A stretch of DNA of 64,000 bases from Frigoribacterium sp. Leaf263. Its GTDB lineage: Bacteria > Actinomycetota > Actinomycetes > Actinomycetales > Microbacteriaceae. Shown here in pieces: positions 21,479 through 64,000 of the stretch. How positions within the stretch are numbered: the stretch's first letter is position 1; each line of letters begins with the position of its first letter. Both the position numbers and the translations under genes were made by a program. The notes beneath the pieces were generated by a model. The model saw only the letters and a program-made list of their open reading frames with translations. It made no database searches and was not told where the DNA came from. The stretch lies in contig NZ_LMMO01000004.1 in NCBI RefSeq assembly GCF_001422285.1, positions 374,983-438,982 of the forward strand, read 5' to 3'.

Positions 21479-21567
21479 CCAGCCGGCCCGCGCCTCCTGA
21501 CCCATCGGCCCGGCCGGTCTCCTGACCAGCCGGCCCGCGCCTCCTGACCCATCGGCCCGGCCGGCCT
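21474..21567. repeat. Two 47-bp tandem repeats starting at the GH42 stop codon
   Basis: Unit 1 (21474-21520) begins CCTGACCAGCC, where TGA is the GH42 stop. Unit 2 (21521-21567) repeats the same 47 bp, including the TGA. Each unit contains one CCGCGCCTCC. Confidence 0.85.
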
Positions 21568-21613
21568 CCCGGCCCGCCGGCCACCGCATCGCACACGCAT
21601 CGAAGGGGATGCC

Positions 21614-22915
21614 ATGAGACATCGGAAGAGAACGACCCGCGTCGCCGCCCTGGCGACCCTCCTGCTCGGGGGAGCCGCCCTCAGCGGCTGCTCGGCCGCG
21701 GGAGGGGGCGACGACGTCGTCCAGCTCGAGTACTGGGGGTGGGGCGTCGGCCAGTCCGAACAGGTGGCCCTGTGGAACGCCGCGAACCCGGACGTGCAGG
21801 TGCGGCACACCGACGCCGGAGGCGGAACGGACTCCGCGGCGAAGCTCCTGACCTCGAGCCGGGCGGGCAACGCCCCCGACGTCGCGCTGGCCGAGTACAC
21901 GACCATCCCGTCGCTCGTGATCGCGGACGTGCCCCGCGACATCACCGATCTCGTGGCCGACGTCGACGACGCGTTCACCGAGGGCACCTGGGCGCAGACC
22001 ACGTTCGGCGGGCAGGTCTACGCGCTGCCGCAGGACGCCGGGCCCATGGTGCTCACCTACCGCGCCGACCTGCTGGCCGAGACGGGGCAGGCCGTGCCGA
22101 CGACCTGGCAGGAGTTCGGCGACGTCGCCCGTGCCGTGCACGAGCAGCGCCCCGACACCGTGCTCGCGGCGGTCCCGGCCGGCGAGCTCGGCTTCTGGGC
22201 CGGGGTCTCGGCCCAGGCCGGCGCCGACTGGTGGACGGTCGACGAGAGCGGCTGGACGGTCGGCATCGCCGACGAGCGCATGCTCGAGGTCGCCGACTTC
22301 TTCGAGGGGCTCGCGGCCGACGGGGCGATCGACACCGACCCCGTGCTGTCGCCCGAGTACAACAAGCGGGTCAACGACGGCACGATCGGCGGCTGGGCGG
22401 CCGGCATCTGGGCGCCGAGCGTGCTGGGCGGCGTGGCCCCCGACACGTCGGGGCTGTGGGAGATCAGCCCGCTGCCCGAGTGGATCCCGGGCGAGGCCGC
22501 CGTGCCGTTCCAGGGCGGCTCGGCGCTGATCGTCACGAAGAACAGCGAGCACCCCGAGGAGGCCGCGGCGTTCGCCGAGTGGATGAACGCCAGCACCGAG
22601 GGCAACCAGTCGCTGCTCGACGTCCGCGGCGTCTACCCGGCGTCGATCGAGGGTCAGGCGCTGGCCGTGGGCAACCCCCCGCCGTCGCTGATGCCGCAGC
22701 AGACCGAGTTCTACGACGTCGCCGCCGACGTCTCGGAGGACGTCCTCCCCACCACGTGGGGCCCCAACGTCGCGCTGGCGACGACCACGCTCACCGACGA
22801 GCTCAACGCCGCGATCTCGGCCGGCACCCCGTGGCGCGACGCCTTCGTCGCGACGCAGGCCGCGGTCGTCGCCGACATGGAACAGGTGGGATACCAGGTG
22901 ACCGCGAATGACTGA
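21614..22915 (+). CDS. Sugar ABC transporter, extracellular solute-binding lipoprotein (family 1)
   Basis: 433 residues. Signal peptide with lipobox ALSGC near residue 26, then the family-1 binding protein pattern: VVQLEYWGWGVGQSEQVALW, APDVALAEYTTIP, YALPQDAGPMVLTYRADLL. It is followed by two permeases with 8-base and 4-base overlaps. Expected ligand: a galactoside or other oligosaccharide, inferred from the adjacent GH42 enzyme. No ATPase gene is present, so a shared MsiK-like ATPase elsewhere is likely. Confidence 0.93.
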   Translation: MRHRKRTTRVAALATLLLGGAALSGCSAAGGGDDVVQLEYWGWGVGQSEQVALWNAANPDVQVRHTDAGGGTDSAAKLLTSSRAGNAPDVALAEYTTIPSLVIADVPRDITDLVADVDDAFTEGTWAQTTFGGQVYALPQDAGPMVLTYRADLLAETGQAVPTTWQEFGDVARAVHEQRPDTVLAAVPAGELGFWAGVSAQAGADWWTVDESGWTVGIADERMLEVADFFEGLAADGAIDTDPVLSPEYNKRVNDGTIGGWAAGIWAPSVLGGVAPDTSGLWEISPLPEWIPGEAAVPFQGGSALIVTKNSEHPEEAAAFAEWMNASTEGNQSLLDVRGVYPASIEGQALAVGNPPPSLMPQQTEFYDVAADVSEDVLPTTWGPNVALATTTLTDELNAAISAGTPWRDAFVATQAAVVADMEQVGYQVTAND

Positions 22916-23879
22916 CACCGCGCTGCGCCCCGAGATGACGCACCCCGTGACCGCGAGCCCGGCGCCACGCCCGGCCCGTCGTCGACGGAGCCCCCTGGCC
23001 CCCTACCTGTTCGTGGCGCCGGCCGTCGTGCTGTTCGTCGCGTTCATGCTCATCCCGCTCGTCTACACGATCTGGTCGAGCCTCAGGGCGTACCGGATCG
23101 AGGAGGGCGCCTCGGTGCTCGGCGTCCGCGTCGACCGCTTCGTCGGGTTCGACAACTACGTCGCCGTGCTGCAGGACGCCGAGCTGCTGGCGAGCTTCGG
23201 CCGCCTCGGCGTGTACGGGCTCATCGCCGTTCCGCTGACGCTCGGGCTCGCCCTGCTCTTCGCGCTGCTGCTCGACGTGCCGGCGGTCCGCGCCCGGCGG
23301 TTCTCGCGCACCGCGATCGTCATCCCGTACGCGGTGCCGGGCATCACCGCCGCGCTGCTCTGGGGCTTCATGTACCTGCCGAGCACGAGCCCCTTCTCGT
23401 ACGTGACGACCGCCCTGGGCTGGGGGCCCGTGCCGTTCCTCGAGGCGGGCGGTCTCTTCGGGTCGCTCGCCAACATCGCCATCTGGGGCGGCGTCGGCTT
23501 CAACATGATCATCATCTACACGTCGCTGCGGGGCATCCCGGCCGAGATCTACGAGTCGGCCCGCCTCGACGGGGCGAGCGAGCTGCAGGTCGCGCTCCGC
23601 ATCAAGGTGCCGCTCGTCGTGCCCGCGCTCGTGCTCACCGGGGTCTTCGCCCTGATCGGCACGCTCCAGCTCTACGGCGAGCCGAACACCCTCCGTCCCC
23701 TGACCACCGAGATCACACAGAGCTGGGCCCCGCTGATGACCATCTACCGCGACGCGTTCCTGACCGACGACCTGCCCGCGGCTGCCGCCTCGTCGACCAT
23801 CCTCGCCCTGGGCACCGTGCTGCTCTCGGGCGTCGTGCTCGCGATCGCGAACCGCCGCCGCGCGGAGGCGGCCTCGTGA
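22908..23879 (+). CDS. Sugar ABC transporter permease, MalF type
   Basis: 323 residues with six main helices after a basic N-terminus. The EAA loop is YESARLDGASELQVALRIKVPL. The start overlaps the end of the binding-protein gene. Confidence 0.93.
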   Translation: MTDTALRPEMTHPVTASPAPRPARRRRSPLAPYLFVAPAVVLFVAFMLIPLVYTIWSSLRAYRIEEGASVLGVRVDRFVGFDNYVAVLQDAELLASFGRLGVYGLIAVPLTLGLALLFALLLDVPAVRARRFSRTAIVIPYAVPGITAALLWGFMYLPSTSPFSYVTTALGWGPVPFLEAGGLFGSLANIAIWGGVGFNMIIIYTSLRGIPAEIYESARLDGASELQVALRIKVPLVVPALVLTGVFALIGTLQLYGEPNTLRPLTTEITQSWAPLMTIYRDAFLTDDLPAAAASSTILALGTVLLSGVVLAIANRRRAEAAS

Positions 23880-24808
23880 CCGCCGTCCAGACGCCCCGCG
23901 GGGCGCGGACCGGGAGCCGAGGAGGCGCGGGTGACGTCGGCGGGACGCCCCGCCCCGGCGGCCGGTCGCCCCGCCCGAGCAGCAAGGGCAAGGTGCTGCC
24001 GACGATCGTGCTGCTCATCGGGGCCTTCTACTGCCTCGTGCCGGTCGGCTGGGTGTTCATCGCCTCGTCGAAGTCGCCGGCTGAGCTGTTCACGTCGTTC
24101 TCGTTCGCCCCGGGCACCGGCCTGGCCGGCAACCTGAGAGACCTGTTCGCCTACGAGGGCGGGCAGTACGGGCTGTGGGCCGCGAACTCGCTGCTCTACG
24201 CCGGCGTCGGCGGCGTGCTCTCGACGCTCGTCTCGACGATGGCGGGCTACGCCCTGGCGAAGTACACCTTCCGCGGGCGGAACCTCATCTTCTTCACGAT
24301 CCTCGCCGGCGTGCTCATCCCGGGCATCACCCTGGCGATCCCGCAGTACATCCTGCTGAGCGAGATCGGGCTGGCGGGCGGGCCGATCTCGGTCCTGCTG
24401 CCGATCATCATCAGCCCGTTCGGCATCTACCTCTCGCGCGTGTTCGCCCAGTCGGCGGTCCCGCACGAGATCCTCGAGGCGTCGCGCATCGACGGCGCGG
24501 GCGAGTGGCGCATCTTCCGCCACATCGTGCTGCCGATCATGGTGCCCGGCATGGTGACGGTCTTCCTGCTGCAGTTCGTCGGCATCTGGAACAACTTCCT
24601 CCTGCCGTTCGTCATGCTCAGCGACCAGGCGGACTACCCGCTGACCGTGGGGCTCTACACGCTGCTGTCGAAGGGATCGGGCGCCCCCGCGCTGTACTCG
24701 CTGGCCATCACCGGGGCGGCCGTGTCGATCATCCCGCTGACTCTGCTGGTGCTGTTCCTGCAGCGCTTCTGGCGGCTCGACCTCATCTCGGGAGGGCTCA
24801 AGGGCTGA
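23876..24808 (+). CDS. Sugar ABC transporter permease, MalG type
   Basis: 310 residues from a GTG overlapping the previous stop. The EAA loop LEASRIDGAGEWRIFRHIVL and the short C-terminal tail DLISGGLKG are typical of MalG-type subunits. The first 45 residues are a Gly/Arg-rich cytoplasmic extension that includes one copy of the dispersed 10-mer at 23921. Confidence 0.93.
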   Translation: MTAVQTPRGARTGSRGGAGDVGGTPRPGGRSPRPSSKGKVLPTIVLLIGAFYCLVPVGWVFIASSKSPAELFTSFSFAPGTGLAGNLRDLFAYEGGQYGLWAANSLLYAGVGGVLSTLVSTMAGYALAKYTFRGRNLIFFTILAGVLIPGITLAIPQYILLSEIGLAGGPISVLLPIIISPFGIYLSRVFAQSAVPHEILEASRIDGAGEWRIFRHIVLPIMVPGMVTVFLLQFVGIWNNFLLPFVMLSDQADYPLTVGLYTLLSKGSGAPALYSLAITGAAVSIIPLTLLVLFLQRFWRLDLISGGLKG

Positions 24809-24873
24809 CCCGCTCCGGGCCCGGATGGCGAACGGAGGAGGCGGCGGAGCCGGAGATCGGCGACCATGGAGGA

Positions 24874-26748: not shown

Positions 26749-26770
26749 CGGGCGCACCACCGGAGGAGAT

Positions 26771-26799
26771 GGCGGGGCCGGGTCCGACCCGGCCCCGCC
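26771..26799 (+). terminator. Strong GC hairpin after the BCCT gene
   Basis: Perfect 14-bp arms (GGCGGGGCCGGGTC and its complement) around a single central base, 22 bp after the stop. There is no T-run, as is common for actinobacterial terminators. Confidence 0.75.
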
Positions 26800-26970
26800 G
26801 ACGTGGCGGCCGTTTCACGACGCCGTCACCCGGATGCCCGTGACCTCATGGGAGGCGCGGCGGGCATCGGCATCACCGTACGATCGACCACCGACATCGG
26901 CTCCTGCGGGGTCTAGGGTCGCATCAGGCGGGCGGTCGCTGACGACCGCCCCGGACCGGAGGGACCGCTC

Positions 26971-27423
26971 ATGACCGCACCCGCTTCGGAGGGCGTCGAG
27001 ATCGTCCGCGACCTCGCCGCGCCTCCTGCCGACGTGTTCGAGGCGTGGACCACCGCCGAGCGCTTCTCGCGCTGGTTCGGGGGCCCCGCGGTCGACGTGC
27101 CGCTCGACCGCCTCGCCTACGAGCCCGTCGAGGGCGCCGGCTGGGCCGCCACGATGATCCTGCCCGACGGGAACGCGATGGACTGGGCTGGCGACTTCGT
27201 CGAGGTCCAGGCCCCGGTCCGCCTCGTGCTCACCATCACCGATGCGCCGGACGCCCCCGAGCGGGCCACCATCACCGTCGATCTGAGCCCCGCCCCGATC
27301 GGGACGACCATGCGCTTCACGCAGGAGACCCCCGGCTTCTCGGCCGAGCAGCAGCAGGGTCTCGTCGCCGGGTGGCAGGGATTCTTCGACGAGCTCGCCG
27401 CCGGACTGCCCGCGCGGGGCTAG
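26971..27423 (+). CDS. SRPBCC/AHSA1-like domain protein
   Basis: 150 residues. VEIVRDLAAPPADVFEAWTT and AERFSRWFGGP are the START-like AHSA1 opening; the end FSAEQQQGLVAGWQGFFDEL is the long C-terminal helix. It probably binds a hydrophobic ligand. It stands alone. Confidence 0.88.
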   Translation: MTAPASEGVEIVRDLAAPPADVFEAWTTAERFSRWFGGPAVDVPLDRLAYEPVEGAGWAATMILPDGNAMDWAGDFVEVQAPVRLVLTITDAPDAPERATITVDLSPAPIGTTMRFTQETPGFSAEQQQGLVAGWQGFFDELAAGLPARG

Positions 27424-27454
27424 ACAGCCCGGCGGCCGGTCGTCCCCCGACGTC

Positions 27455-28213: not shown

Positions 28214-28278
28214 GGTCGTCTTCTTCTCGATTCTCGTGTCGTTCGGTGATCGGCGCTCGCCGGGCGAGGCCGCGGGGG

Positions 28279-28887: not shown

Positions 28888-28905
28888 CGTGCTGCTCCGA
28901 TCTCA

Positions 28906-28941
28906 GCGGAGACCGTCTCCGCATAAGAGGAGACTATCTCC
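28906..28941. promoter_or_regulatory. Two TetR-type operators in tandem
   Basis: GCGGAGACCGTCTCCGC (28906-28922) is a perfect 17-bp palindrome. GGAGACTATCTCC (28929-28941) repeats the same half-sites. Both lie directly upstream of the tetR start. Confidence 0.8.
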
Positions 28942-28983
28942 GTCTTCTGAGAGCGCAACCCCGCGAGGTCGCGGCGCGGGCGA

Positions 28984-29268
28984 TCAGCCGAGTCGCTCGG
29001 CGAGGTGCACGGTGACCTCGTCGCCGTCCGTCTTGCCGATCCGCCGACGGATCGCCGCCGCGACGGGCAGCTTGTGGGTGCCGTCGCCCAGGGCCATGAA
29101 CGAGCTCCGGAACGGCTCCCCGTCGATGGTCCCGGCGACCTTGACGAGGCCCCGGGTTCCGAAGATCGTCGCCGAGTCGGGCAGCTGCACGCAGGTCCAG
29201 AGATCGCCCTCGCGAACCCTGCCGAGGGTCGCCGTGAAGGTGAGGTCGAGCGGGCCGCGGGTGGTCAT
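28984..29268 (-). CDS. DUF1905 domain protein
   Basis: 94 residues starting [60 protein letters not shown] and [20 protein letters not shown] are the DUF1905 pattern, a small beta-barrel of unknown function. The frame extends to 29412, but the ATG at 29268 matches the family start. Confidence 0.88.
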
Positions 29269-29459: not shown

Positions 29460-30905
29460 CTACTCGGGCCGCTGAGCCGCCGGGACGGTCTTCTCGGCGC
29501 GCACGGCCGGCTCGTCCTGCCGGGCCCCCGCCGGCCACGACTCGGGCCCCGCCGACCCGGCCGGGTACGTGTCGAGCTCGACCGCGCCGTCGTTCCATGC
29601 GGCGACCACGGGGTCGACGATGCGCCAGCACTGCTCGGCCGTGTCACCGCGCACCGAGAGGGTCGGGTCGTCGTCGAGGATCCCGCTGAGCACCTCGCCG
29701 TAGGCCGTCAGGTCCGAGCTGCCGAACTCCGCGTGCAGCGCCGCCCGACCGAGGTCGTACGCGTCGCCGGGCCCGTTGACGTTCAGCTCGAGCGACATCT
29801 CGTCGGGCGAGATCGCGATGCGCAGGCGGTCGGGCGTGCCGCCTCCCTCGAACTCCGCCGGCACGTGCGCGGGCGGGCGGAACGTGATCACGATCTCGCG
29901 CCTCCTCGAGGCCAGCGCCTTGCCCGAGCGCAGCAGGATCGGCACACCGGCCCACCGCCAGTTCGCCACCTCGACCACGACCTCGGCCAGCGTCTCGGTC
30001 TCGAGCGCCGGGTCGACGCCGTCCTCGTCGGCGTACGCCGGCAGCTCGCGGCCGTCGACCGTGCCGGCCTCGTAGCGCGCCCGGCGGCTGTTGGCGACGG
30101 GGTCGTTCTGCCACAGCCGCGTCGCACGCAGCACGAGCCCCTTCTCGTCGCGCAGATCGGCGGCCGTCAGCGTCGCCGGGGCGTTCATCGTCAGCACCGC
30201 CATCACCTGCAGCAGGTGACTCTGGATCATGTCGACCAGGGCCCCCGCGTGGTCGTAGTAGCGCGCCCGGTTCTCGAGCCCGAGCTCCTCGTCGTAGACG
30301 ATCTCGATGCTCTCGACGTGCGCGTTGTTCAGCATCGGCTCGATCAGCCGGTTCGCGAACCGCAGCCCGAGCAGGTTCAGCACGGTCGACCGGCCGAGGA
30401 AGTGGTCGACCCGGTGCACCTGGTCCTCGGGCACCAGCGCCAGCACCTCGCCGTTCAGCTTCCGGGCGCTCGCGAGATCGGTGCCGAACGGCTTCTCGAG
30501 CGCCAGCGCCGTGCCCTCGGGCAGATCGAGCTCGGCCAGCGCGGCGCAGCACTTCGCCGTGATCGCGGGCGGCAGGGCGAAGTAGATCGAGGGAGGCGCG
30601 GTGCACTCCTCGAGGAGCCCCCGCATCTGCTCGACGTCGGTCACGTCGACGGTGCGGTAGACGGTCGACTCGAGCAGCGCGTCGACCGCCGGCCCCGACG
30701 CGTCGACGCGCGCGAACGCGTCGGTCACGTGCTCGCGCCACGCCTCGGGCTCGAACTCCTCGGTGCCGGCGCCCACCAGCTGCACCCGCCGCTCGGACTC
30801 GTGCGTCAGCAGCCCGCCGAGACCGGGCATCAGGAGGCGCGCGGCGAGATCACCGCTCGCGCCGAGCATCAGGAGGGTCGCGGACTCGGTCGGCGCGTTC
30901 GTCAT
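29460..30905 (-). CDS. zwf: Glucose-6-phosphate dehydrogenase
   Basis: 481 residues. The NADP-binding site LLMLGASGDLAARLLMP is at 11-27, the catalytic region RVDHFLGR at 165-172 (His168; usual RIDHYLGK, with Lys changed to Arg), and the C-terminal domain contains LRIAISPDEMSLELNVNGPG. It oxidises glucose-6-phosphate to the lactone, the first step of the pentose phosphate pathway. The Lys-to-Arg change and the lack of opcA, tal or pgl neighbours suggest a secondary paralogue rather than the housekeeping copy. Confidence 0.88.
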   Translation of the reverse strand: MTNAPTESATLLMLGASGDLAARLLMPGLGGLLTHESERRVQLVGAGTEEFEPEAWREHVTDAFARVDASGPAVDALLESTVYRTVDVTDVEQMRGLLEECTAPPSIYFALPPAITAKCCAALAELDLPEGTALALEKPFGTDLASARKLNGEVLALVPEDQVHRVDHFLGRSTVLNLLGLRFANRLIEPMLNNAHVESIEIVYDEELGLENRARYYDHAGALVDMIQSHLLQVMAVLTMNAPATLTAADLRDEKGLVLRATRLWQNDPVANSRRARYEAGTVDGRELPAYADEDGVDPALETETLAEVVVEVANWRWAGVPILLRSGKALASRRREIVITFRPPAHVPAEFEGGGTPDRLRIAISPDEMSLELNVNGPGDAYDLGRAALHAEFGSSDLTAYGEVLSGILDDDPTLSVRGDTAEQCWRIVDPVVAAWNDGAVELDTYPAGSAGPESWPAGARQDEPAVRAEKTVPAAQRPE

Positions 30906-33607: not shown

Positions 33608-33698
33608 GGCGACCTGCGCGCCCGAGACGACCTGCGCGCCCGAGACGACCTGCGCGCCTGAGGCGACCTGCGCGTTTGAAGCGACCCGCGCCTCCTCG
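33591..33698. repeat. 18-bp tandem array starting inside the HAD gene
   Basis: Units of GCGACCTGCGCGTCTGAG type at 33591, 33609, 33627, 33645 and 33663, plus a degenerate sixth ending in CCGCGCCTCC. The first unit contains the HAD stop TGA; in units 2 and 3 the same position is CGA. The 18-bp period keeps reading frame. Confidence 0.9.
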
Positions 33699-34170: not shown

Positions 34171-36264
34171 ATGTCCCGAACCATGCGCGTCCGCGTGAGC
34201 GGCGCCACCACCAGTGAGACACCACCACCCGCCGCGGCCGCCCTGCGCGACCGCCTCGACGACCCGACCGTCGCTCCGCCCCCTCGATCGCCCGGCGCCC
34301 CCCTCTCGCCCCGCGGTCTGAGACACCTAGCACCCGCGAGCGACGGTCGGGTCGAGCCCCGCCACCCCCTGGGGCCCGACCACCCCGTCGGGCCCGACGA
34401 CCCCGTCGAGCCCGAGCACCCCACCGAGCCCGCCCGGGCCGGCCGCGGCACAGAGCCCGACCTCGCCGCCCGGGCCGAGCCGCCGCACCCGGCGAAGCGG
34501 CTGACCTCCGACCACCACGCGTCGGTCGTCTCGCGCACCGAGGGCCGGGCGCACTCGCCGTTCATGGTGCTGCTCGTGCTGGCCTGCACGATGGGGATCC
34601 TGCTCTACGGGCAGTTCCTGCTGAACCCCGCGAATCGAGGCGACCTGCTGCCGTACGCGGCGGTGATCGTCGCCGAGGCGGTGCTCGTGCTGCAGGCGCT
34701 GCTGTCGATGTGGACGATCCTCTCGGGCGGTCAGAACCCACGCGACTTCGACTTCCACTCGACGCAGGACGGCCTCTACGACCAGCAGGCGATCGGCCGC
34801 CTCGGGGTCCGCGACCAGCCGCACCTGTGGCCGATGGCGATCGGCGGACGACCCGTCGTCGTCGACGTGCTGATCACGGTCTACGGCGAGGATCTCGCGA
34901 AGATCGCCCTCACCGTGCAGGCGGCCCTGTCGATGCAGGGCGCGCACCGCACCTGGGTCCTCGACGACGGCCGCAGCGACGAGGTCCGCGAACTCGCGGC
35001 GACCCTCGGCGCCCGGTACGTGAGGCGGCTGAGCGGCAACGGAGCGAAGGCCGGCAACGTCAACCACGCGCTGACCGTCGCGAAGGGCGACTACTTCGCG
35101 ATCTTCGACGCGGACTTCGTGCCGAAGCCCCTCTTCCTGCACGAGACGGTGCCGTTCTTCGTCGACGACAAGGTCGCCTTCGTGCAGACCCCGCAGTCGT
35201 ACGGCAACCTCGTCAGCCTGGTCAGTCGCGGCGCCGGCTACATGCAGGCGGTCTTCTACCGGTTCATCCAGCCGGGTCGCAACCGCTTCAACGCCGCGTT
35301 CTGCGTGGGCACGAACGTGGTCTTCCGCCGGACTGCCGTCGACAGCGTCGGCGGGATCGACACCGACTCCAAGTCGGAGGACGTCTGGACGAGCCTCCAC
35401 CTGCACGAGGCCGGCTGGCGCTCGATCTACATCCCGCTGACCCTCGCGATCGGCGACGCCCCCGAGACCATCGAGGCGTACAGCAAGCAGCAGCTGCGCT
35501 GGGCGACCGGCGGCTTCGAGATCCTGCTGCGCCACAACCCGCTCAGCCCGCGCCGGAACCTCACGATGGATCAGCGGTTCCAGTACACGCTGACCGCCAC
35601 GCACTACCTCACGGGCATCGCCCCGCTGCTGCTGATCATGGTGCCGCCGATGGAGATCTTCTTCGATCTGCGCCCGATGAACCTCCACATCTCGGTGCTG
35701 CAGTGGCTGCTGTTCTACTGCGGCTTCTACCTGCTGCAGATCGCGTTGGCGTTCTTCACCCTCGGCTCGTTCCGCTGGGAGGTGCTGATGCTCGCGTCGG
35801 TGTCGTTCCCGATCTACGTCAAGGCGCTCTGGAACGTGCTCTGCGGCAAGGACACCGCCTGGCACGCGACGGGCGGTCGGACGGCGTCGAGTCCGTTCGA
35901 CTTCCTGATCCCGCAGGTGCTGTTCTGGGTGTTCCTGTCGCTGACGTCGCTCGTCGCGATCTGGCGCGACTACGACAACCGGGTGCTGACCCTGGCCACC
36001 GTGTGGAACCTCATCAACACGGCCGTCCTGACGGCGTTCCTGATCGCGGCCCTCAAGGAGGCGCGGGTCATCAGGCGGGCCGCCCGCCGAGGTGTGCCCG
36101 CGAGACCGTCGCCGAACGACCCCGTCCCCTCCGCCCCCGTGGTCGCGCCCCCGCTCCGCACCACCGTGGCCCGGCCCGCGCCCCGCACGCAGGAGGAGAT
36201 CCTCGTGGTGATGTCGGAGGAGTCCGCGGCGCGCGCCTCCGGACGTCGGGCGGTGCTCTCATGA
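34171..36264 (+). CDS. GT2 processive glycosyltransferase, cellulose/curdlan synthase-like
   Basis: 697 residues. A 130-residue Pro-rich cytoplasmic N-terminus with GPDHPVGPDDP repeats precedes two helices (131-181). The GT-A domain has DDG 265-267, DAD 313-315, QTPQ 340-343, FCVGTN 377-382, SED 402-404 and Q-x-x-R-W (QQLRW, 440-444), the set of BcsA-type beta-glycan synthases. Several C-terminal helices form the channel. No PilZ domain is seen. GGAG lies 10 bp before the ATG. Next genes: an adaptor protein and a GH81 beta-1,3-glucanase, so a beta-1,3-glucan or mixed glucan product is plausible. Confidence 0.92.
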   Translation: MSRTMRVRVSGATTSETPPPAAAALRDRLDDPTVAPPPRSPGAPLSPRGLRHLAPASDGRVEPRHPLGPDHPVGPDDPVEPEHPTEPARAGRGTEPDLAARAEPPHPAKRLTSDHHASVVSRTEGRAHSPFMVLLVLACTMGILLYGQFLLNPANRGDLLPYAAVIVAEAVLVLQALLSMWTILSGGQNPRDFDFHSTQDGLYDQQAIGRLGVRDQPHLWPMAIGGRPVVVDVLITVYGEDLAKIALTVQAALSMQGAHRTWVLDDGRSDEVRELAATLGARYVRRLSGNGAKAGNVNHALTVAKGDYFAIFDADFVPKPLFLHETVPFFVDDKVAFVQTPQSYGNLVSLVSRGAGYMQAVFYRFIQPGRNRFNAAFCVGTNVVFRRTAVDSVGGIDTDSKSEDVWTSLHLHEAGWRSIYIPLTLAIGDAPETIEAYSKQQLRWATGGFEILLRHNPLSPRRNLTMDQRFQYTLTATHYLTGIAPLLLIMVPPMEIFFDLRPMNLHISVLQWLLFYCGFYLLQIALAFFTLGSFRWEVLMLASVSFPIYVKALWNVLCGKDTAWHATGGRTASSPFDFLIPQVLFWVFLSLTSLVAIWRDYDNRVLTLATVWNLINTAVLTAFLIAALKEARVIRRAARRGVPARPSPNDPVPSAPVVAPPLRTTVARPAPRTQEEILVVMSEESAARASGRRAVLS

Positions 36265-40918: not shown

Positions 40919-40955
40919 CCGCGCCTCCTCGGTGCCTCGTCGTCGTGCCTCGTCG

Positions 40956-43070: not shown

Positions 43071-43276
43071 GCCGTCATCGTACGAGGGTGGGCGGGGCGC
43101 TCGCGGCGTGCGGGGCGAGGGGTGTGGAGAACCGGCGCCGCGCCTCCTCGGCCGGTGTCCCGAGACGGCGACCCGCGCCTCCTCGGCTGCGATCGCCTCG
43201 TCACGGGGTCGCACCTGCTTGTATGCTGACGCGTCGTCCCCGGACGGGGGTCGACACCGGCGAACCAGGAGACGAC

Positions 43277-45809: not shown

Positions 45810-46008
45810 GGGGTCCTAACGGGTCGGCGCTCGATGAGACCCCTGATCGTAGTCGAGCGCGCGCAGCCGGGCCCGCCGGGTGGCCGCGGGGCGACTCCGC
45901 GGGAGGCGAGGCCCCGTCGAGCCGTCAGCTCTACGGCGAGCTGTCGCGTCGCGTGATGCGAGCGGATCGGGGAGGCGCGGTGTCCGGTCGACCCGCGCCT
46001 CCTGCCGG

Positions 46009-47739: not shown

Positions 47740-50700
47740 TCACGACCTCAATCGGATGCCGCTGGGGGTGGGGGCGAAGCCGGCGTCGCGCAGGGCGTCG
47801 CCGAGAGGCGTGCCGAGGACGAACTCGCCGTCGACGCGCTCGATGGCGAGCTTGCCGAGCCGCGTGCGGACCGTGCGGGCCAGCGACTCGGCGGCCAGGG
47901 CGAGTTCGCGCTCGTCGGGATCGCCGAAGGTCAGCACGGTCTTCCCGCCGCGTTCGACGTAGACGGTCAACCGGCCGTCGACGAGCACGACCAGCGAGCC
48001 GGCCTTCCGCCCGGGGCGGTGACCGGCCTTCTTCTTCGTGCCCGGAGCCGCGCCGACGGTCGGGTCGGAGCCCTGCCGGTCGCCGCCGGCCGAGGAGGCG
48101 CGGGTCGTCGTCGCAGCGCCCGCCGCGTCGCCTCGGGCCCCGGCTCCCGTCGCCGTGGTCGCCGCCGCAGCGGAGGCCGCCTCGGCCGCCGCCGCCGCGA
48201 CGCGGGCGGCCTCGTCGGCGGGGGCGCCGTCGAGCGTCTGCCCGGGCCAGGGCAGGGCGGCGCCGTAGGGGTTGGCGGGGTCGGTCGCGGCCAGGGTGAC
48301 GACCGGGATCTCGAGCTGACGACCGGCTGCGACGAGGGTGTCGTCGTCGCGTCGGTCGCCCTCGTCGCGGATGAACGAGCGGAGCCGGTCGACGGTGGGG
48401 CCGGTCGCGAACTGCGCGGCGCCGAGCCCTTCGATGAAGTAGCCGCGGCGGGCGCGCCCGGTCTCCTCGAAGCCGCTCAGCACCTTGTACGCGGTCGAGA
48501 AGCCCCCGCGGACGCCCTCGTTGACGACCGCTCCGCGCGTGACGACCCCGTGGCGCTCGAGCAGGATCTCGGCCGTCGCCGCGGCGCGGATCGTGCCGTC
48601 GGGTTCGGCGAGGGGCAGCAGCGACCAGCGGCCCCCGACCGTGGGCGGGCCGGCCTGGCGGGGCATCGCGACCCGGCCCCGGCTGCGGTACGACGACCGC
48701 GACCGCGTGGGGGTGCGCGGTCTCGGCGTCTTGCCGCCGCCGACCTGGGTGCGCAGGGGCGCGAAGGTGTCGTTGGTGATCTGACCGGCCCAGACCAGCT
48801 GCCAGATGGCGGCGACCAGCGATTCGTCGTCGGTGCTCCCGACGGCGTCGGAGAGCTGCCGGAAGAAGTACGCGCCGCCGCCGGCGAGTGCGGCGAGCAC
48901 CTCGCGCTGCAGGTCGTCGGTCTCGGCGCCCGAGGGTTCGGGCAGCGTGACCTGAGCCCCGTCGGCGAGGTGGAGGCTCACCCAGCCGTCGTTGCCGGGC
49001 AGGGTGCCGGTGCCCGACCAGATGATGTCGCCCGTGGCCGTGAGCTCGTCGAGCATGGCGGGGCTGTAGTCGGTGATGCGGGCGGGGAGGATGAGCGACT
49101 CCCAGGCGGAGGCCGGCAGCGAGACGCCGCTGAGCTGGTCGACGACCTGCAGCACGCCGTCGAGTCCGCGCAGCCCGGAGCCCTTCAGCCCGGTGGCGAC
49201 GTGCTGCCAGGCGGGAAGGAACCTCCCGAGCGTCTCGGGCGCGACGGGTTCGACCTCGTGACGGAGCGCCGCCAGCGACTTGCCGCGCAGACGTCGCAGC
49301 ACCTCGGCGTCGCACCACTCGCTGCCCTGCTGGCGGGGGCGGAACTCGCCCTCGACGACGCGACGCTGGGTGGCGAGCTTGCGGAGGGCGTCGAGGACGA
49401 CGGCTGCGCCGAGTCCGAGCCGCTCGGCGACCATCGCCGACGTGAACGGGCCGTGCGTGCGGGCGAAGCGGCCGACGAGATCGCCGAGCGGGTCGTCGAC
49501 CGGCTCGACGAAGGCGGTGGGGACGCCGATGGGCAGGGCGACCCCGAGCGCGTCCCGGAGGCGCGAGGCGTCTTCGATGCCGGCCCAGCGCACGACGCCG
49601 CCGTGGGTGAAGCGCAGCACGCGGTTCGACCAGGCGAGGTCGGTCAGCGCGGTCTCGAGGGCGCGGTGCGCGTCGTCGCGGGCGGCGACGTCACCGGCCA
49701 CGAGGGTGACGGCGAGCCAGCTGCGGTCGATGATCTCGTCGGTGGTGAGCGGGCCGAGCAGTCGCAGGAGGTCGACGACGCCCTCGATGTCGCGGGCACG
49801 GCGGTCGGGGGCGAGCCGCTGCAGCTCGAGCTCGTGCTGATCGATGACGTCGGCGTCGAGGAGCTCGCGCAGCTCGGCGCGACCGAGGAGCTCCTGCAGG
49901 AGCGTCGAGTCGAGCGAGAGCGCGGCGGCGCGGCGCTCGGCGAGGGGCGAGTCGCCTTCGTACATGAAGGCCGCGACGTAGCCGAACAGCAGCGACCGCG
50001 CGAACGGCGACGGCACCTCGGTCTCGGTCTCGACGATGCGGACGGTCCGACTGGCGAGGTCGCGGGTCAGGCTCATCAGCGCGGGCAGGTCGTAGACGTC
50101 TTGCAGCACCTCGCGGACGGCCTCGAGGACGATCGGGAACGAGGGGTACTTGCGGGCGACGTCGAGCAGCTGCGACGACCGCTGACGCTGCTGCCAGAGC
50201 GGTGAGCGCTTGCCGGGGTTGTACCGCGGCAGCAGCAGGGCGCGGGCGGCGCACTCGCGGAACCGCGACGAGAAGAGCGCCGAGCCGCCGACCTCCTCGG
50301 TGACGATGTCGTCGAGATCGTCGAGTTCGAACGAGAACAGCTCGGCCCCGGGAGGCTCGGCGTCGGTGTCGGGGATCCGCACGACGATGCCGTCGTCGGC
50401 CGCCATGGCCCCGCCGTCGACGCCGAGCTGATCGCGGATGCGCGCCGACACCGCGAGAGCCCAGGGGGCGTGGACCTGCATGCCGTAGGGGGAGTGGAGG
50501 ATGAGCCGCCAGTCGCCGAGCTCGTCACGGAACCGCTCGACGACCAGGGTCGTGTCGGTCGGCACGTACGACCCGGCGGCCTTCTGCTCTGTCAGGAACG
50601 CGATGAGGTTGCGGGCCGCCCGCTCGTCGAGCCCGCCCGCGGCGACCCGCGCCGTCGCGTCGGCCTCGTTCGAGTTCGACAGCTCGCGGATGTAGCCGCC

Positions 50701-53468: not shown

Positions 53469-53675
53469 GTGACCCGCCGAGGAGGCGCGGCGCTCCGACG
53501 AGGGCAGCTGGCCGTCAGCAAGGTGCTCGCCTTCGTGTCGGCGCTCGCCCTGCTCGTCGGTCTCGTCCGCATCCTCCAGGCGCACGTCGTGGCGGGCGCC
53601 GCCTTCGTCATCATCGCCGTCGCCCTGATCGCGGTGGCGTTCGCGCTGGCCCGGGCGGCGACCCGGCGTCGCTGA
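53469..53675 (+). CDS. Small membrane protein, two helices
   Basis: 68 residues from a GTG, beginning TRRGGAALRRGQLAVSKVL with helices AFVSALALLVGLVRIL and AAFVIIAVALIAVAFALARA. Its first codons include the dispersed 10-mer at 53481. Possibly co-transcribed with azoR. Its end (RAATRRR-stop) is repeated downstream. Confidence 0.55.
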   Translation: MTRRGGAALRRGQLAVSKVLAFVSALALLVGLVRILQAHVVAGAAFVIIAVALIAVAFALARAATRRR

Positions 53676-53774
53676 CGCGAGCAGCGCCTCTCCGGGCGGC
53701 GACCCGGCGTCGCTGACGCGAGCCGCGCCTCCTCGGGCGGCGACCCGGTCTGGGTAGGTCGAGCCGCGCCTCCT
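53652..53774. repeat. Three 41-bp tandem units starting at a gene 3' end
   Basis: Units begin CGGGCGGCGACCCGG at 53652, 53693 and 53734. Unit 1 holds the stop codon of the small membrane gene; unit 2 repeats GTCGCTGACGCGAGC including TGA; unit 3 has diverged. Units 2 and 3 contain CCGCGCCTCC (53723, 53764). Confidence 0.88.
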
Positions 53775-53810
53775 CGGCCCGGTGTCGGCGGCACCGCCTA
53801 CGCTGGCGGC

Positions 53811-57247: not shown

Positions 57248-57314
57248 GCGTCCACCGTACCCGGGCGCGCCTGGCCCCCCGGCGAACCGTCATCGCGGCC
57301 GTGCGCGACGCCGA

Positions 57315-57500
57315 GGAGGCGCGGCGGGGGAGGGAGCACCGCAGCGGCTCTGTGCGCGGCGCCTTCCGCGCCCGCGGCCCTGTGCACGACACCCTCAGCG
57401 TCACGCCCGCCGCCCGCCGCCCGCCGCCCGCCGCCCGCGCGCGCGCCCGCGGCCCTATGCGCGACACCCTCAGCGCCACGCCTCCGCGCACACACCCTCA
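57315..57500. repeat. Intergenic low-complexity with repeated gene 3' ends and a CCGCCCG microsatellite
   Basis: Two about 38-bp units (CGCCCGCGGCCCTGTGCACG type, near 57369 and 57444) each contain GACACCCTCAGCG, matching the CACCCTCA that holds the stop codon of the leftward gene at 57498. Between them CCGCCCG is repeated four to five times (57407-57437). Confidence 0.75.
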
Positions 57501-58352
57501 GGCGTGCCGCGTCCCCTCGCCGCCGAGCACGGCGCGATACCCCTCACGGAACGTCGGGTAGGCGAACGCGAACCCCGTCGACCGCAGTCGGGCGTTCGAG
57601 AGCCGCTTGTCGCCGCCCGCCTGCCGACCCGTCGGGGGAGCCATCGCCGGCGCCGTGACGCCCAGCTCGGCGGCCAGGAAGAGCAGGACCTCGTCGAGCC
57701 GGGCCGGCTCGTCGTCGACCCCGAGGTAGACGGCCTCGGGCTCCGAGACCACCGTCGTGAGGTGCACGATCGCGGCCGCGGCGTCGTCGCGGTGGATGCG
57801 GTTGGTGTGAGGCGAGCCGTCGCGCCGTTCGGATCGCGTGGCGCTCCCGTCGCGCACCTGCTCGATCAGTCGCTCGCGACCCGGCCCGTAGACGCCGCCG
57901 AGGCGCAGCGTCACCGCCTCGGGCGCACGCTCGCGCAGCAGCTGCTCGGCCTCGAGCAGCACGTCGGCGGTGGGGGTGCCGCCGTGCGCGGGGGTCTCCT
58001 CCGTGACGAGGCTGCCGTCGGTCACGTCGTACACGGCGGTCGACGAGACGACGAGGAGGCGCGGGTCGGCAGCCGACGCCGCGATCCCGTCGAGCACGTT
58101 GCGCAGGCCCTCCACGTAGGTGGCGCGGTACTCGCCCGGCGTGCGCGAGCCGGCCGCGAGGGCCACGACGACGACCTCGGTGTCGTCGTCGACGACGGGC
58201 ACCTCGCGGCGCAGGTCGACCGACCGGCCCTCGATGCGGGACGGCAGCAGGTCGGCGCGACGCCGGAGCCCGACGACGCGGTGCCCGTCGGTCGCGAACC
58301 GCAGCCCCGTCTCGGTGCCCAGGTCGCCGCAGCCCGCGATCAGAACGCTCAT
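57498..58352 (-). CDS. NAD-dependent epimerase/dehydratase-like protein (atypical SDR, YeeZ-like)
   Basis: 284 residues. MSVLIAGCGDLGTETGLRFA carries the atypical GxGxxG of the YeeZ group; LLVVSSTAVYDVTDGS and LRLGGVYGPGRERLI follow. Substrate unknown. A KRLSNARLRSTGFAFAYPTF segment near the end is family-typical. Confidence 0.9.
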   Translation of the reverse strand: MSVLIAGCGDLGTETGLRFATDGHRVVGLRRRADLLPSRIEGRSVDLRREVPVVDDDTEVVVVALAAGSRTPGEYRATYVEGLRNVLDGIAASAADPRLLVVSSTAVYDVTDGSLVTEETPAHGGTPTADVLLEAEQLLRERAPEAVTLRLGGVYGPGRERLIEQVRDGSATRSERRDGSPHTNRIHRDDAAAAIVHLTTVVSEPEAVYLGVDDEPARLDEVLLFLAAELGVTAPAMAPPTGRQAGGDKRLSNARLRSTGFAFAYPTFREGYRAVLGGEGTRHA

Positions 58353-58392
58353 GCTCCGACCCTAGTGGGCCGCGCCTCCCCGGCCGCCGGCC

Positions 58393-58939: not shown

Positions 58940-60061
58940 ATGACCCCCATCGACCGAGCACCGATCGTCATCGAGCGGATCGCCGTCCCCGCGACCCTCG
59001 ACGGCCCCGACGCCGCCGACTTCGTCGAGGCGGTCGCCGTCGAGAATGTGACGCGGGCGCATGCGCTCGGCTCGGACGAGATGGCCTGGCTGCCCGACGA
59101 GCAACTGCCGAACTGGCTCGACGCCTACAAGGACATGCGCTGGTTCGTCGTCCGCGACGCCGGTCGCATCGTCGCCACCGGCTCGTACGAGAGCCGTCTC
59201 GACGGCGACGCCGCGACCACGGCCCACGTCGACGTCACGGTGCTGCCCTCGCACCGACGCCGCGGCATCGGGTCGGCGCTGCTCGCCCACGTCGAGGAGG
59301 TCGCGCGCCGCGAGGGTCGCACCCAGGTGATCGCGTACGTGCGCTCCCTCGGTGATGCCGGACCGCGCCTCCTGCCCCCGACCGGCGCCGGCTCGGTCGG
59401 CGCCGACGACCCCGCGGTGCGCCTGCTGCTCGGGCGCGACTGGGTGCTCGGGCAGGTGATGCGCTGCAGCCGCCTCGCCCTGCCCGTGGACGAGGAGGCG
59501 CTGGCCGGCATCCGAGACCGCGCCCGGGCCGCCGCGGGCGACGACTACCGATTGCGCACCTGGATCGGCCGATCGCCCGACGAGTGGCTGGCCGACCTCG
59601 CCGACCTCGAGACCCGGATGAGCACGGACGCACCGTCGGGCGGGGTCGACGAGCCCGAGGACATCTGGACCGCCGAGCGGTTCCGTGACGCCGAGGACCA
59701 GGCGCTCGCCGGCCCGCGCACGCGCTTCACGGCCGTCGTCGAGCACGTGCCGACGGGTCGACTCGCCGGATTCAGTCAGCTGGAGGCACCGGCCGAGCGG
59801 TCGCGCCCCGCCTTCCAGCAGGACACCCTCGTGCTGCGCGAGCACCGCGGGCACCGGCTCGGCTGGCTGCTCAAGATCGCCACGACCGATCTGCTCACCG
59901 CCGAACGCCCCGGCCACCCCGGCGTCTTCACGTTCAACGCGGAGGAGAACCGGCCCATGCTCGACGTGAACGAGGCCGTCGGCTTCGTCCCGTTCGAGTA
60001 CGAAGGGGTGTGGAGCAAGCAGGTCCGAGCAGACGGGGCGGGTGTGCGCCTCAGGCCGTGA
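58940..60061 (+). CDS. Double GNAT-domain acetyltransferase
   Basis: 373 residues. The first GNAT domain has VDVTVLPSHRRRGIGSALLA (acetyl-CoA loop) and the second HVPTGRLAGFSQLEAP with TLVLREHRGHRLGWLLK. Such tandem proteins include mycothiol synthase-like and antibiotic-modifying enzymes; substrate not predictable. It overlaps the convergent SIMPL gene by 11 bp. Confidence 0.88.
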   Translation: MTPIDRAPIVIERIAVPATLDGPDAADFVEAVAVENVTRAHALGSDEMAWLPDEQLPNWLDAYKDMRWFVVRDAGRIVATGSYESRLDGDAATTAHVDVTVLPSHRRRGIGSALLAHVEEVARREGRTQVIAYVRSLGDAGPRLLPPTGAGSVGADDPAVRLLLGRDWVLGQVMRCSRLALPVDEEALAGIRDRARAAAGDDYRLRTWIGRSPDEWLADLADLETRMSTDAPSGGVDEPEDIWTAERFRDAEDQALAGPRTRFTAVVEHVPTGRLAGFSQLEAPAERSRPAFQQDTLVLREHRGHRLGWLLKIATTDLLTAERPGHPGVFTFNAEENRPMLDVNEAVGFVPFEYEGVWSKQVRADGAGVRLRP

Positions 60062-60722
60062 AGTCCGCGCTGATGGTCGCCGTGACCTCGATGTCGTCGG
60101 GCTGCAGGTCGAACACGACCGAGCCCGAGGCGTCGACGGACGAGCCGGCCATCATCGACCGTGAGGCCATGAACGGGACGCCACCCGCGCCTCCTTCGCC
60201 CGGCCGCAGCCCCGGCTCGTAGACGGCCTGCAGCTCGGGTGCGCCCAGCCCGAGGGCGTCGGCGTAGTCCGAGGCGCGCGCGACGGCGTCCGCCACGGCG
60301 GCGAGTCGGGCGTCCTGCTCGACCTCGGCCCGGCGCGCGTGCCCGAGCGACCACTCGACGCCCTCGATCGTGACGCCCTCGACGTGCGCGAGCTCGCCCA
60401 CCCAGTCGGCCAGCGCGGTGAAGTCCTGGAACCTCACCTCGATCGTCGACCGCGTCCGGTACCGCACCGAGGAGGCGCGGGTCCCGTCGATCGCGACCGG
60501 CTCCGTCACGGGACCCACCGACACGGATCGGGCCGTCCACCACGTCGCCGCCCCCTGGCGACGCAGGGTCGTCGCCTGCTCGGTGACGCGGTTGTGGACG
60601 GTGACGCCGTCGTCCACGACGCTCGACCGGTCGTCGCCCTCGAGCTCGACCGCCAGCCGCAGCAGACCGCGCTCGGCGCGATACCGGTGCGTGACGCTGC
60701 CGGTGACGGCGATGACGGCCAC
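60051..60722 (-). CDS. SIMPL (DUF541) domain protein
   Basis: 223 residues. VTGSVTHRYRAERGLLRLAV, RYRTRSTIEVRFQDFTALAD and the last strand DDIEVTATISADFTA are the SIMPL pattern. Unlike most family members no signal peptide is present, so it appears cytoplasmic. Confidence 0.86.
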   Translation of the reverse strand: MAVIAVTGSVTHRYRAERGLLRLAVELEGDDRSSVVDDGVTVHNRVTEQATTLRRQGAATWWTARSVSVGPVTEPVAIDGTRASSVRYRTRSTIEVRFQDFTALADWVGELAHVEGVTIEGVEWSLGHARRAEVEQDARLAAVADAVARASDYADALGLGAPELQAVYEPGLRPGEGGAGGVPFMASRSMMAGSSVDASGSVVFDLQPDDIEVTATISADFTA

Positions 60723-62156: not shown

Positions 62157-62208
62157 CTGGGCCGATCATCCACAGCCGAGGAGGCGCGGGTGGCGTCGTG
62201 CGGATCAC

Positions 62209-63141: not shown

Positions 63142-63167
63142 CGCGCTGCGCGGCGGTGCAACGCGCA

Positions 63168-63227
63168 ACACCCCGTTCTCGGCGCGACACCCCGATGAAT
63201 GCGGGTGTTGCGCTGAGAACGGGGTGT
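63168..63227. repeat. 60-bp hairpin, family copy E (opposite orientation)
   Basis: Outer arms ACACCCCGTTCTC/GAGAACGGGGTGT are perfect; inner arms CGCGACACCC/GGGTGTTGCG pair with one mismatch. It lies between two convergent genes and is probably a bidirectional terminator. Confidence 0.88.
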
Positions 63228-63256
63228 CAGGCGGGTCGCGGCGTCAGGCGCGGGGG

Positions 63257-64000
63257 TCAGCGACCGCTGCGCTGGCCGCCGCCGGTGCGGGCCTTGCCGC
63301 CGACGAGGCCGCCGACCTTGAGCGAGCCGGGGCGACCGCCCTCCGAGGAGGCGCGGCGTCCGCCGGAGCGCTGCCCGCCTTCGCGGGGGCCGCCCTGCGA
63401 TGCGGCGAAGTCGGCCTGGTCGTTGCGCACGGCGTTGGTGCGGCTCTGACCGCCGTCGCTCTGGGCACGGCGACCGGTCTGGCGGGTGCCACGCGTCTCG
63501 TCACGGCCGGCGTCGCGCCCGGCGTCACGGCCGCCCTCGCGGACGGGCGTCACCGCGCCGCGCCCGGACTCCGTCGAGTAGAACGTCGAGGCTCCGCCAC
63601 GGGGGGCGGCGTCGCGGCGCGCACCGCCGTCGCGGCCGGCACCCTGGCGTCCGCCGTCACGCGAGCCACCCGAGCGAGCGGCACCGTCGCGACCGCGACC
63701 GGCGTCGGATGAGCGACCCGCGCCTCCTTGGCGTCCGTCGCGCGAGCCGCCGGCCGAGGCCGCGGGGCGACCCGAGCGGTCCTGGCGGGCGATGGGGTTG
63801 CCCTGCGAGTCCTGACGGGCGGCGCGCTTGCGCTGCGCGTTGGCGCCCTGCGAGCGACCGCCGCCGCCCTGCTGCTGCTGGACGGCCGCGCGGGGGGCCG
63901 GCTTCACGTAGGCGGCGACCTCGCCGACCAGCGCGGCGACCTCGGGCGAGGACGGCACGACGGCGGTGATGGTCGGACGGATGTCGGCCTTCTTCATCAG
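63257..64000 (-). CDS. C-terminal part of a DEAD-box RNA helicase (partial)
   Basis: The frame enters from the right edge. LMKKADIRPTITAVVPSSPE is like the segment after the last helicase motif in Microbacteriaceae DEAD-box (RhlE-like) helicases. The remaining about 200 residues are a disordered Arg/Gly/Gln/Ser-rich tail with repeats such as GGSRDGRQGG, RDAGRDAGRDE and GGQRSGGRR, expected to bind RNA. The catalytic core lies outside the window. Confidence 0.75.
   Translation of the reverse strand: MMKKADIRPTITAVVPSSPEVAALVGEVAAYVKPAPRAAVQQQQGGGGRSQGANAQRKRAARQDSQGNPIARQDRSGRPAASAGGSRDGRQGGAGRSSDAGRGRDGAARSGGSRDGGRQGAGRDGGARRDAAPRGGASTFYSTESGRGAVTPVREGGRDAGRDAGRDETRGTRQTGRRAQSDGGQSRTNAVRNDQADFAASQGGPREGGQRSGGRRASSEGGRPGSLKVGGLVGGKARTGGGQRSGR

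What the first reader, a model, noticed from the sequence alone, without database searches (positions are those of the whole stretch)
21488..63727. Highly iterated, non-palindromic 10-mer (C)CGAGGAGGCGCGG(G) restricted to one part of the window
I count about 33 exact GGAGGCGCGG/CCGCGCCTCC sites in 43 kb, about equally on both strands, versus one in the first 21 kb. At this GC content I would expect one or two. Many copies extend to CCGAGGAGGCGCGGGT. They occur inside genes in several reading frames (giving EEAR, PRLL, RASS, APP) and between genes, so protein selection alone does not explain them. It recalls HIP1 of cyanobacteria or DNA-uptake, Chi or KOPS signals, but is not one that I know.
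Basis: seen in the sequence. Interest (0 to 1): 0.75.

Follow-up and report, generated by a model that had tools for sequence, protein, structure and literature searches.

The report
Genome-wide DNA tag in Frigoribacterium
A leaf-associated bacterium carries a short, non-palindromic DNA word hundreds of times across its genome on both strands, and related genera carry different repeated words; the pattern looks most like the self-DNA tags some bacteria use when taking up DNA, which my searches did not find described for this branch of bacteria.

Summary
Observation confirmed and larger than stated. GGAGGCGCGG occurs 36 times in the window; the 16-mer CCGAGGAGGCGCGGGT occurs 220 times in the 3.24 Mb genome (reversed control 0). 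The host is Frigoribacterium (Microbacteriaceae). The motif is iterated in all 16 Frigoribacterium genomes searched and occurs 0 to 2 times in each of 244 other family genomes. It uses all six reading frames and lies between genes too, so codon or protein bias does not explain it. It is strand-balanced, without replication polarity in the one closed genome tested, more conserved than its flanks, and sometimes paired as terminator-like hairpins. Two unexpected findings: (1) same-orientation copies avoid each other within about 1 kb, opposite copies do not; (2) other genera carry their own iterated words, above all CGGATGCCG (up to about 3,000 copies), near baseline in Frigoribacterium. Best reading: a DNA-uptake-sequence-like self-tag with genus dialects, working with ComEA/ComEC and a Tad pilus, possibly directionally (confidence 0.45). 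Rivals: a Chi-like signal for an AdnAB-type helicase-nuclease, or a HIP-like chromosomal word. Function is untested. Restriction to one part of the window is weak: 3 copies where 8.6 are expected, P about 0.03.

The parts
5285..5294 (+). core GGAGGCGCGG
17097..17106 (-). core
18932..18941 (+). core
21488..21497 (-). core, in a direct repeat of 47-bp period with the next
21535..21544 (-). core
23917..23932 (+). full 16-mer CCGAGGAGGCGCGGGT
26851..26860 (+). core
27017..27026 (-). core
30592..30601 (+). core
33686..33698 (-). 13-mer CGAGGAGGCGCGG
36057..36066 (+). core
37188..37200 (-). 13-mer
37407..37422 (+). full 16-mer
37904..37919 (-). full 16-mer
38984..38993 (+). core
39178..39190 (+). 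13-mer
40856..40865 (+). core, facing the next copy 63 bp away
40917..40932 (-). full 16-mer
43023..43032 (+). core
43138..43150 (-). 13-mer
43171..43186 (-). full 16-mer
45971..46002 (.). inverted pair of cores (45971 + and 45993 -), terminator-like hairpin between genes
48090..48105 (+). full 16-mer inside the lhr-like helicase gene
53478..53490 (+). 13-mer
53723..53735 (-). 13-mer
53764..53776 (-). 13-mer
57312..57324 (+). 13-mer
58052..58064 (+). 13-mer
58370..58379 (-). core
59363..59372 (-). core
60185..60194 (-). core
60467..60482 (+). full 16-mer
62176..62191 (+). full 16-mer
63344..63356 (+). 13-mer
63718..63727 (-). core

Best explanation
AGGAGGCGCGG(GTC) is a DNA-uptake-sequence-like self-recognition tag of Frigoribacterium, one dialect of a set of iterated words in Microbacteriaceae. 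Proposed mechanism: a DNA-binding component of the competence apparatus (a Tad/Flp minor pilin or the ComEA-type receptor) preferentially binds DNA carrying the tag; ComEC imports one strand; RecA-dependent recombination then spreads and maintains the tags (molecular drive). Because same-orientation copies exclude each other within about 1 kb while opposite copies do not, I infer that use of the tag is directional: DNA on one side or one strand of a tag is processed over roughly 1 kb. SHOWN: over-representation, symmetry, frame independence, genus restriction with different words in other genera, conservation above flanks, hairpin pairs, orientation-specific exclusion, presence of comEA-comEC and tad genes. 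INFERRED: uptake function, receptor, directionality, drive.
For: Counts and controls. Genus restriction: of 249 family genomes the 5 Frigoribacterium hold 56 to 274 copies of the 15-mer, the other 244 hold 0 to 2 each; 14-mer 58 to 511 copies in 16 of 16 Frigoribacterium, control 0. All six frames exceed a synonymous-codon shuffle, 256 CDS copies vs 24.0. Intergenic 125 of 384 vs 48.1 expected by length. Hairpins: 9 facing (FR) neighbour pairs start 20-39 bp apart vs 3 RF and 4 same-strand; of the 9, 6 are wholly intergenic, 1 runs over a gene end, 2 are inside genes. No leading-strand bias in G110 (51 to 55%). Conservation: core 0.969 vs flank 0.847 identity within G000/G259/G250, near the 97% vs about 85% reported for Neisseria DUS (PMC2397512, passages); over 11 non-independent comparisons 56 of 83 aligned sites intact vs 223 of 890 same-composition 10-mers; 57 of 140 sites did not align and were dropped. 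Different iterated words in five of ten other genera sampled and genome-wide counts of one of them. comEA-comEC and tad genes; Tad pili plus ComEA/EC carry transformation in the actinobacterium Micrococcus luteus (PMC4322843, passages). Density falls from 0.54 to 0.12 per kb from the least to the most codon-optimised fifth of genes while a composition control falls about two-fold, as expected for tags in permissive places.
Against: No uptake or transformation data exist here. ComEC and a T2SSE ATPase are near-universal in relatives with and without iterated words (39 of 40; 249 of 249 at E 0.001, 248 over the cut-off), so the machinery does not discriminate. A PilB/GspE-type ATPase (type IV pilus) is missing in exactly the three Frigoribacterium with most 14-mers (G000, G250, G259), so a pilin of such a pilus is an unlikely reader there. 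For known uptake sequences the passages I saw report no effect of orientation on uptake (PMC1939737), whereas here the exclusion is orientation-specific; I could not run a DUS control. Low-GC3 genes are not depleted (6 sites in 30 genes, 0.327 vs 0.341 per kb), and the window's poor region is only P = 0.03. In one comparison (G035 to G249) 0 of 4 aligned sites were intact. The exclusion was clear in one of four sister-genus samples (G025), not in G240, G215 or G026. With the word CGAGGAGGCG neighbours as a whole do not alternate (129 of 274 same), though pairs at 50-500 bp are 8 same vs 24 opposite.
Confidence: 0.45

Rival explanations
1. Chi-like signal: read in one orientation by an AdnAB-type helicase-nuclease unwinding DNA from a broken end, switching it to recombination. 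Sites of opposite orientation serve breaks from opposite sides, so only same-orientation neighbours are redundant.
For: Orientation-specific exclusion below about 1 kb. Two PDDEXK_1 matches about 3.5 kb apart in long open frames (1071 and 1145 aa) at G000:C1:316426 and 319920; PDDEXK_1 found in 29 of 30 relatives. The motif is G-rich.
Against: No leading-strand polarity in G110, whereas Chi is described as polarised (PMC8022716, passages). Information spans more than 12 bp, longer than the 8-bp E. coli Chi. Intergenic preference and hairpin pairs are not expected. That no Chi is known for AdnAB is recalled, from no call.
Confidence: 0.2
2. HIP-like chromosomal word: maintained by an orphan methyltransferase, mismatch repair or a nucleoid or segregation protein, unrelated to uptake.
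For: Another genus of the family (G034) carries an iterated palindrome GGATCC, 222 CDS copies vs 41.4 under codon shuffle plus 25 intergenic in 120 kb, resembling HIP1 (PMC4390886, passages). Copies of the Frigoribacterium word are spread without periodicity (gap CV 1.0).
Against: The Frigoribacterium word is not palindromic and is long with graded flanks. A mutational or repair bias would not by itself produce orientation-specific exclusion at 1 kb.
Confidence: 0.2
3. Binding or polar translocation site (KOPS-like, Noc/MatP-like or SMC loading).
For: Hundreds of genome-wide copies; lower density in the 1.4-2.1 Mb part of G110, which lies around the presumed terminus.
Against: Strand balance and no replichore polarity.
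Confidence: 0.08
4. Ordinary sequence: codon-pair bias, transcription terminators or a dispersed mobile repeat.
For: Some copies form hairpins between genes.
Against: All six frames far exceed codon shuffle; 256 of 384 copies lie inside called genes; flanks diverge while cores stay; logo information is low beyond about 17 bp and near zero beyond about 23 bp, so no larger repeat unit.
Confidence: 0.03

Closest known systems
Neisseriaceae DNA uptake sequence (DUS) dialects
   Same: 10-12 bp non-palindromic word in hundreds to thousands of copies, closely spaced inverted repeats, high conservation, variants within one family (PMC3630211 and PMC2397512, passages)
   Different: Monoderm actinobacterium; no PilB-type pilus in the richest species; orientation-specific exclusion; uptake not shown; shared core between dialects (GGA.GC) only suggestive
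Pasteurellaceae uptake signal sequence (USS)
   Same: Abundant; opposite pairs at gene ends that form hairpins (PMC7811141, passages); [quoted passage not shown]
   Different: Different word; uptake reported independent of USS orientation (PMC1939737, passages)
Chi (GCTGGTGG and relatives)
   Same: Over-represented, G-rich, used in one orientation
   Different: Chi is 8 bp in E. coli and polarised with replication (PMC8022716, passages); this word is longer and unpolarised
HIP1 of cyanobacteria
   Same: Highly iterated, function unsettled
   Different: HIP1 is the palindrome GCGATCGC (PMC4390886, passages); this is not palindromic
Micrococcus luteus Tad/Flp-dependent competence
   Same: comEA-comEC plus tad genes in an actinobacterium (PMC4322843, passages)
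   Different: The terms 'uptake sequence' and 'sequence-specific' do not occur in that paper's text

Membership tests
DNA uptake sequence (DUS/USS) | Strong genome-wide over-representation on both strands equally | tested here: met
DNA uptake sequence (DUS/USS) | No polarity relative to replication | tested here: met
   G110, 480 kb of 3.33 Mb: 66 leading / 55 lagging for the 10-mer, 210 / 199 for AGGAGGCG; dnaA located, terminus assumed opposite
DNA uptake sequence (DUS/USS) | Inverted pairs forming terminator-like hairpins | tested here: met
   9 FR pairs starting 20-39 bp apart, 6 wholly intergenic; termination itself not tested
DNA uptake sequence (DUS/USS) | Cores conserved above their flanks, in permissive places | tested here: met
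   contrary comparison G035-G249 0 of 4
DNA uptake sequence (DUS/USS) | Lineage dialects with a shared core | tested here: inconclusive
   Different iterated words in other genera; shared GGA.GC could be coincidence
DNA uptake sequence (DUS/USS) | Depleted in recently acquired DNA | tested here: inconclusive
   3 vs 8.6 expected in window 1-19,300 (P 0.029); no depletion in 30 low-GC3 genes
DNA uptake sequence (DUS/USS) | Competence machinery present | tested here: met
   comEA-comEC (L274:8452-11663), tad genes (L275:8623-11866); not discriminating
DNA uptake sequence (DUS/USS) | Use independent of orientation | tested here: inconclusive
   Indirect only: same-orientation exclusion suggests orientation matters; no DUS/USS control could be run
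DNA uptake sequence (DUS/USS) | Motif raises DNA uptake or transformation | not testable with these tools
   needs experiment
Chi | Polarised on the leading strand | tested here: not met
   one genome
Chi | Cognate helicase-nuclease present | tested here: inconclusive
   PDDEXK_1 pair; identity as AdnAB inferred from size and adjacency, not tested further
Chi | Motif attenuates the nuclease | not testable with these tools
   needs experiment
KOPS | Polarity from origin to terminus | tested here: not met
   one genome
HIP1 | Palindromic | tested here: not met
   sequence itself
HIP1 | Associated methylation | not testable with these tools
   needs long-read signal data

The most novel reading that the evidence does not exclude
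Microbacteriaceae use genome-wide DNA self-tags with genus-specific dialects (CGGATGCCG-type in many genera, CGGATGCG and GGATCC in others, AGGAGGCGCGG in Frigoribacterium) as a mate-recognition system for transformation in monoderm bacteria through Tad pili, and the tag is read directionally so that each orientation covers its own strand or side over about 1 kb.
Probability: 0.33. Interest if true: 0.9.

Novelty: new variant of a known kind. Interest (0 to 1): 0.75.

Why it matters
In the papers I saw, genomically abundant uptake tags are described for two Gram-negative families, Neisseriaceae and Pasteurellaceae. If the Microbacteriaceae words are uptake tags, self-DNA preference evolved again in a distant monoderm phylum, with dialects that could act as barriers to recombination between genera. 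The orientation-specific exclusion would be a new handle on whether such tags are read directionally, testable at once on Neisseria, Haemophilus and Chi-bearing genomes. If instead the words are Chi-like, they would supply a recombination signal for actinobacterial helicase-nucleases. Either way the genomes point to a directional, kb-scale process acting on hundreds of sites.

Tried and rejected
Codon or protein bias: rejected by synonymous shuffle in all six frames. Dispersed mobile repeat: logo information is low beyond about 17 bp and near zero beyond about 23 bp. Pure terminator: 256 of 384 copies lie in called genes. Replication-polar signal: not seen in G110. A pilin of a PilB-type pilus as reader: ATPase absent in the three richest species. 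Depletion in low-GC3 genes: not found. A megablast of window 19,421-31,421 against plasmids gave 5 records with short matches at 73-80% identity.

Literature: in the held open-access library, searches returned no paper; one search listed 9 papers with Frigoribacterium and competence, whose titles and abstract starts do not concern DNA uptake; the 20 papers listed of 132 all show 0 occurrences of Microbacteriaceae. Searches covered neighbouring topics. Subscription papers and preprints are mostly not held, so absence from print is not shown. Cited papers were seen as found passages only; PMC2346458 was seen as part 1 of 3 of its text and is not relied on.

Limits of the computations: one permutation control reached 219 copies, probably because some permutations overlap the extended motif, so only its mean (14.3 against 384) is useful. 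The gene caller is my own codon-score script, trained on this genome and used unchanged on other genera. In one search, unaligned sites (42, 125, 114 in the three clades) and gapped sites (9, 14, 19) were left out of the identities.
Full report
What is there. GGAGGCGCGG occurs 36 times in the window (19 +, 17 -); 33 lie from 21,488 on and three before. The window is G000:C4:374983-438982 of a 3.24 Mb genome. In the whole genome the 16-mer CCGAGGAGGCGCGGGT occurs 105 + / 115 - and the 14-mer 222 / 233, with 0 for the reversed pattern. In 864 kb (window plus 800 kb of stretches) the 10-mer occurs 384 times vs 15.8 (order 3) and 35.4 (order 5, itself inflated by the motif), and the 16-mer 72 vs 0.06. 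The logo is AGGAGGCGCGG with weaker flanks, CC before and GTC after.

Chance, codons and repeats. Genes were called with my own codon-score script (793 genes, 87.5% coding). 125 of 384 copies are intergenic (48.1 expected by length) and 3 straddle a boundary; the rest use all six frames. Shuffling synonymous codons gives 24.0 CDS copies against 256 observed, each frame in excess. Gaps between copies have CV 1.0, as for random placement. The window's poor first 19.3 kb (lower GC, FecCD transporter genes) has 3 copies vs 8.6 expected (P = 0.029), and its 11.8 kb gap is not exceptional; low-GC3 genes are not depleted. I therefore do not claim an island effect.

Where it is found. Of 249 family genomes, the five Frigoribacterium hold 56 to 274 exact 15-mers; 28 of the other 244 hold one or two, the rest none. 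All 16 Frigoribacterium hold 58 to 511 14-mers, control 0. Sampled species vary the right end: AGGAGGCGGT is also enriched in G110 and G218 and GGAGGCGG in G167.

A family-wide phenomenon. Unguided k-mer counts in one genome of each of ten other genera showed other iterated words in five: CGGATGCC/GGATGCCG (G240, G215, G025), CGGATGCG (G026) and the palindrome CGGATCCG/GGATCC (G034). At 120 kb each, CDS copies exceed the codon shuffle (for example G240 CGGATGCC 73 vs 14.3, G026 CGGATGCG 70 vs 9.5, G034 GGATCC 222 vs 41.4), though the excess is uneven among frames and intergenic preference is absent in some. Among the top words no comparably strong one was evident in G087, G017, G224 or G159, and G055 had a weaker TGGAGGCG (23 vs 4.4 in 40 kb). 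In 249 family genomes CGGATGCCG reaches 3084 copies (G142; reversed control 162), 2929 (G102; 109), 2703 (G212; 128) and 2536 (G063; 72), but is near control in the five Frigoribacterium (121 to 162 vs 105 to 133) and in several genera with small genomes (for example g11, g14, g31, g59, g81), while a few small genomes keep a mild excess. In 297 genomes of the order, of which 23 are of this family, the 274 others stayed low; the highest ratios I read off were about 4.5 (G324 103 vs 23, G378 138 vs 31). The simplest reading is that Frigoribacterium uses its own word in place of the common family word; which is ancestral was not tested.

Behaviour of the sites. Aligned over the syntenic lhr region of 16 genomes, cores keep 0.969 identity vs 0.847 in flanks within G000/G259/G250, 0.979 vs 0.893 in a second clade and 0.905 vs 0.869 in a third; between clades 0.890 vs 0.821 and 0.899 vs 0.825; unaligned and gapped sites were left out. 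Over 11 non-independent comparisons 56 of 83 aligned sites were intact vs 223 of 890 same-composition 10-mers; 57 of 140 sites did not align, and G035-G249 gave 0 of 4. Neisseria DUS are reported at about 97% vs about 85% (PMC2397512, passages). Copies are rarest in codon-optimised genes (0.115 vs 0.539 per kb; composition control 0.0104 vs 0.0211).

Orientation. In G000, pairs 50-500 bp apart number 13 in the same orientation (38.3 expected for uniform placement) but 52 in opposite orientation (39.7 expected); 0 of 500 label shuffles reach the low value in the 50-200 and in the 200-500 bin; the effect fades by about 1.5 kb. Within one called gene, 38 opposite vs 7 same at 50-1000 bp. Five other Frigoribacterium (800 kb) show it more weakly: 29 vs 44.3, 65 vs 87.1, 119 vs 143.3 in bins to 1 kb. 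With the word CGAGGAGGCG, neighbours as a whole do not alternate (129 of 274 same), though pairs at 50-500 bp are 8 same, 24 opposite. Facing and back-to-back pairs are similar beyond 50 bp. In sister genera the exclusion is clear in G025 (8 vs 24 at 50-500 bp) and not in G240, G215 or G026. There is no replication polarity in G110: 54.5% leading for the 10-mer, P 0.36, terminus assumed opposite dnaA.

Machinery. G000 has comEA (SLBB plus HHH) next to comEC (L274) and tad genes: a T2SSE ATPase, a T2SSF protein, a DUF4244 protein and a weak TadE/G-like match just under Pfam's cut-off (L275). ComEC is in 39 of 40 relatives and a T2SSE match in 249 of 249 family genomes, 248 over the cut-off, so presence does not discriminate. 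A strong PilB/GspE-type match is in 13 of 16 Frigoribacterium and absent from G000, G250 and G259, the three with most 14-mers; some genomes rich in CGGATGCCG lack it too (for example G106, G215, G057). Two adjacent PDDEXK_1 matches in open frames of AdnAB size are present.

Interpretation. Symmetry, length, graded flanks, hairpin pairs, permissive placement, conservation and different words in related genera match uptake sequences better than Chi, KOPS or HIP1. In Micrococcus luteus, Tad pili with ComEA/EC carry transformation (PMC4322843, passages), so a pilus-based reader is plausible without a PilB-type pilus. The orientation-specific exclusion is not a property of uptake sequences in the passages I read and would fit Chi as well; I read it as directional use of the tag. 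Function remains inference.

Noticed in passing
G034 (other genus of the family), L182-L183, L230-L233: Palindrome GGATCC is highly iterated: 222 CDS copies vs 41.4 under codon shuffle plus 25 intergenic in 120 kb, a HIP1-like word in an actinobacterium.
   Followed up: partly
Microbacteriaceae genomes (e.g. G142, G102, G063): CGGATGCCG occurs up to about 3,000 times per genome, strand-balanced; in 274 sampled genomes of other families of the order it stays within about 4.5 times its reversed control.
   Followed up: partly
G000, G250, G259 vs the other 13 Frigoribacterium: A PilB/GspE-type ATPase (and a neighbouring second T2SSE-family match) is missing from the three species with most 14-mer copies.
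   Followed up: partly
G110 stretches (L172-L175, L206-L225): A second 12-mer TCGAGGGCGGGT occurs 29 times in 480 kb vs 0.96 expected; not examined.
   Followed up: no
G110 about 1.4-2.1 Mb: AGGAGGCG/GGAGGCGCGG density is lower around the presumed terminus than elsewhere in the sampled stretches.
   Followed up: no
window 21488-21544: Two copies lie in a direct repeat of 47-bp period just downstream of a GH42 beta-galactosidase gene.
   Followed up: no
window 1-19300: Lower GC and GC3, FecCD-type transporter genes; probably accessory DNA.
   Followed up: partly
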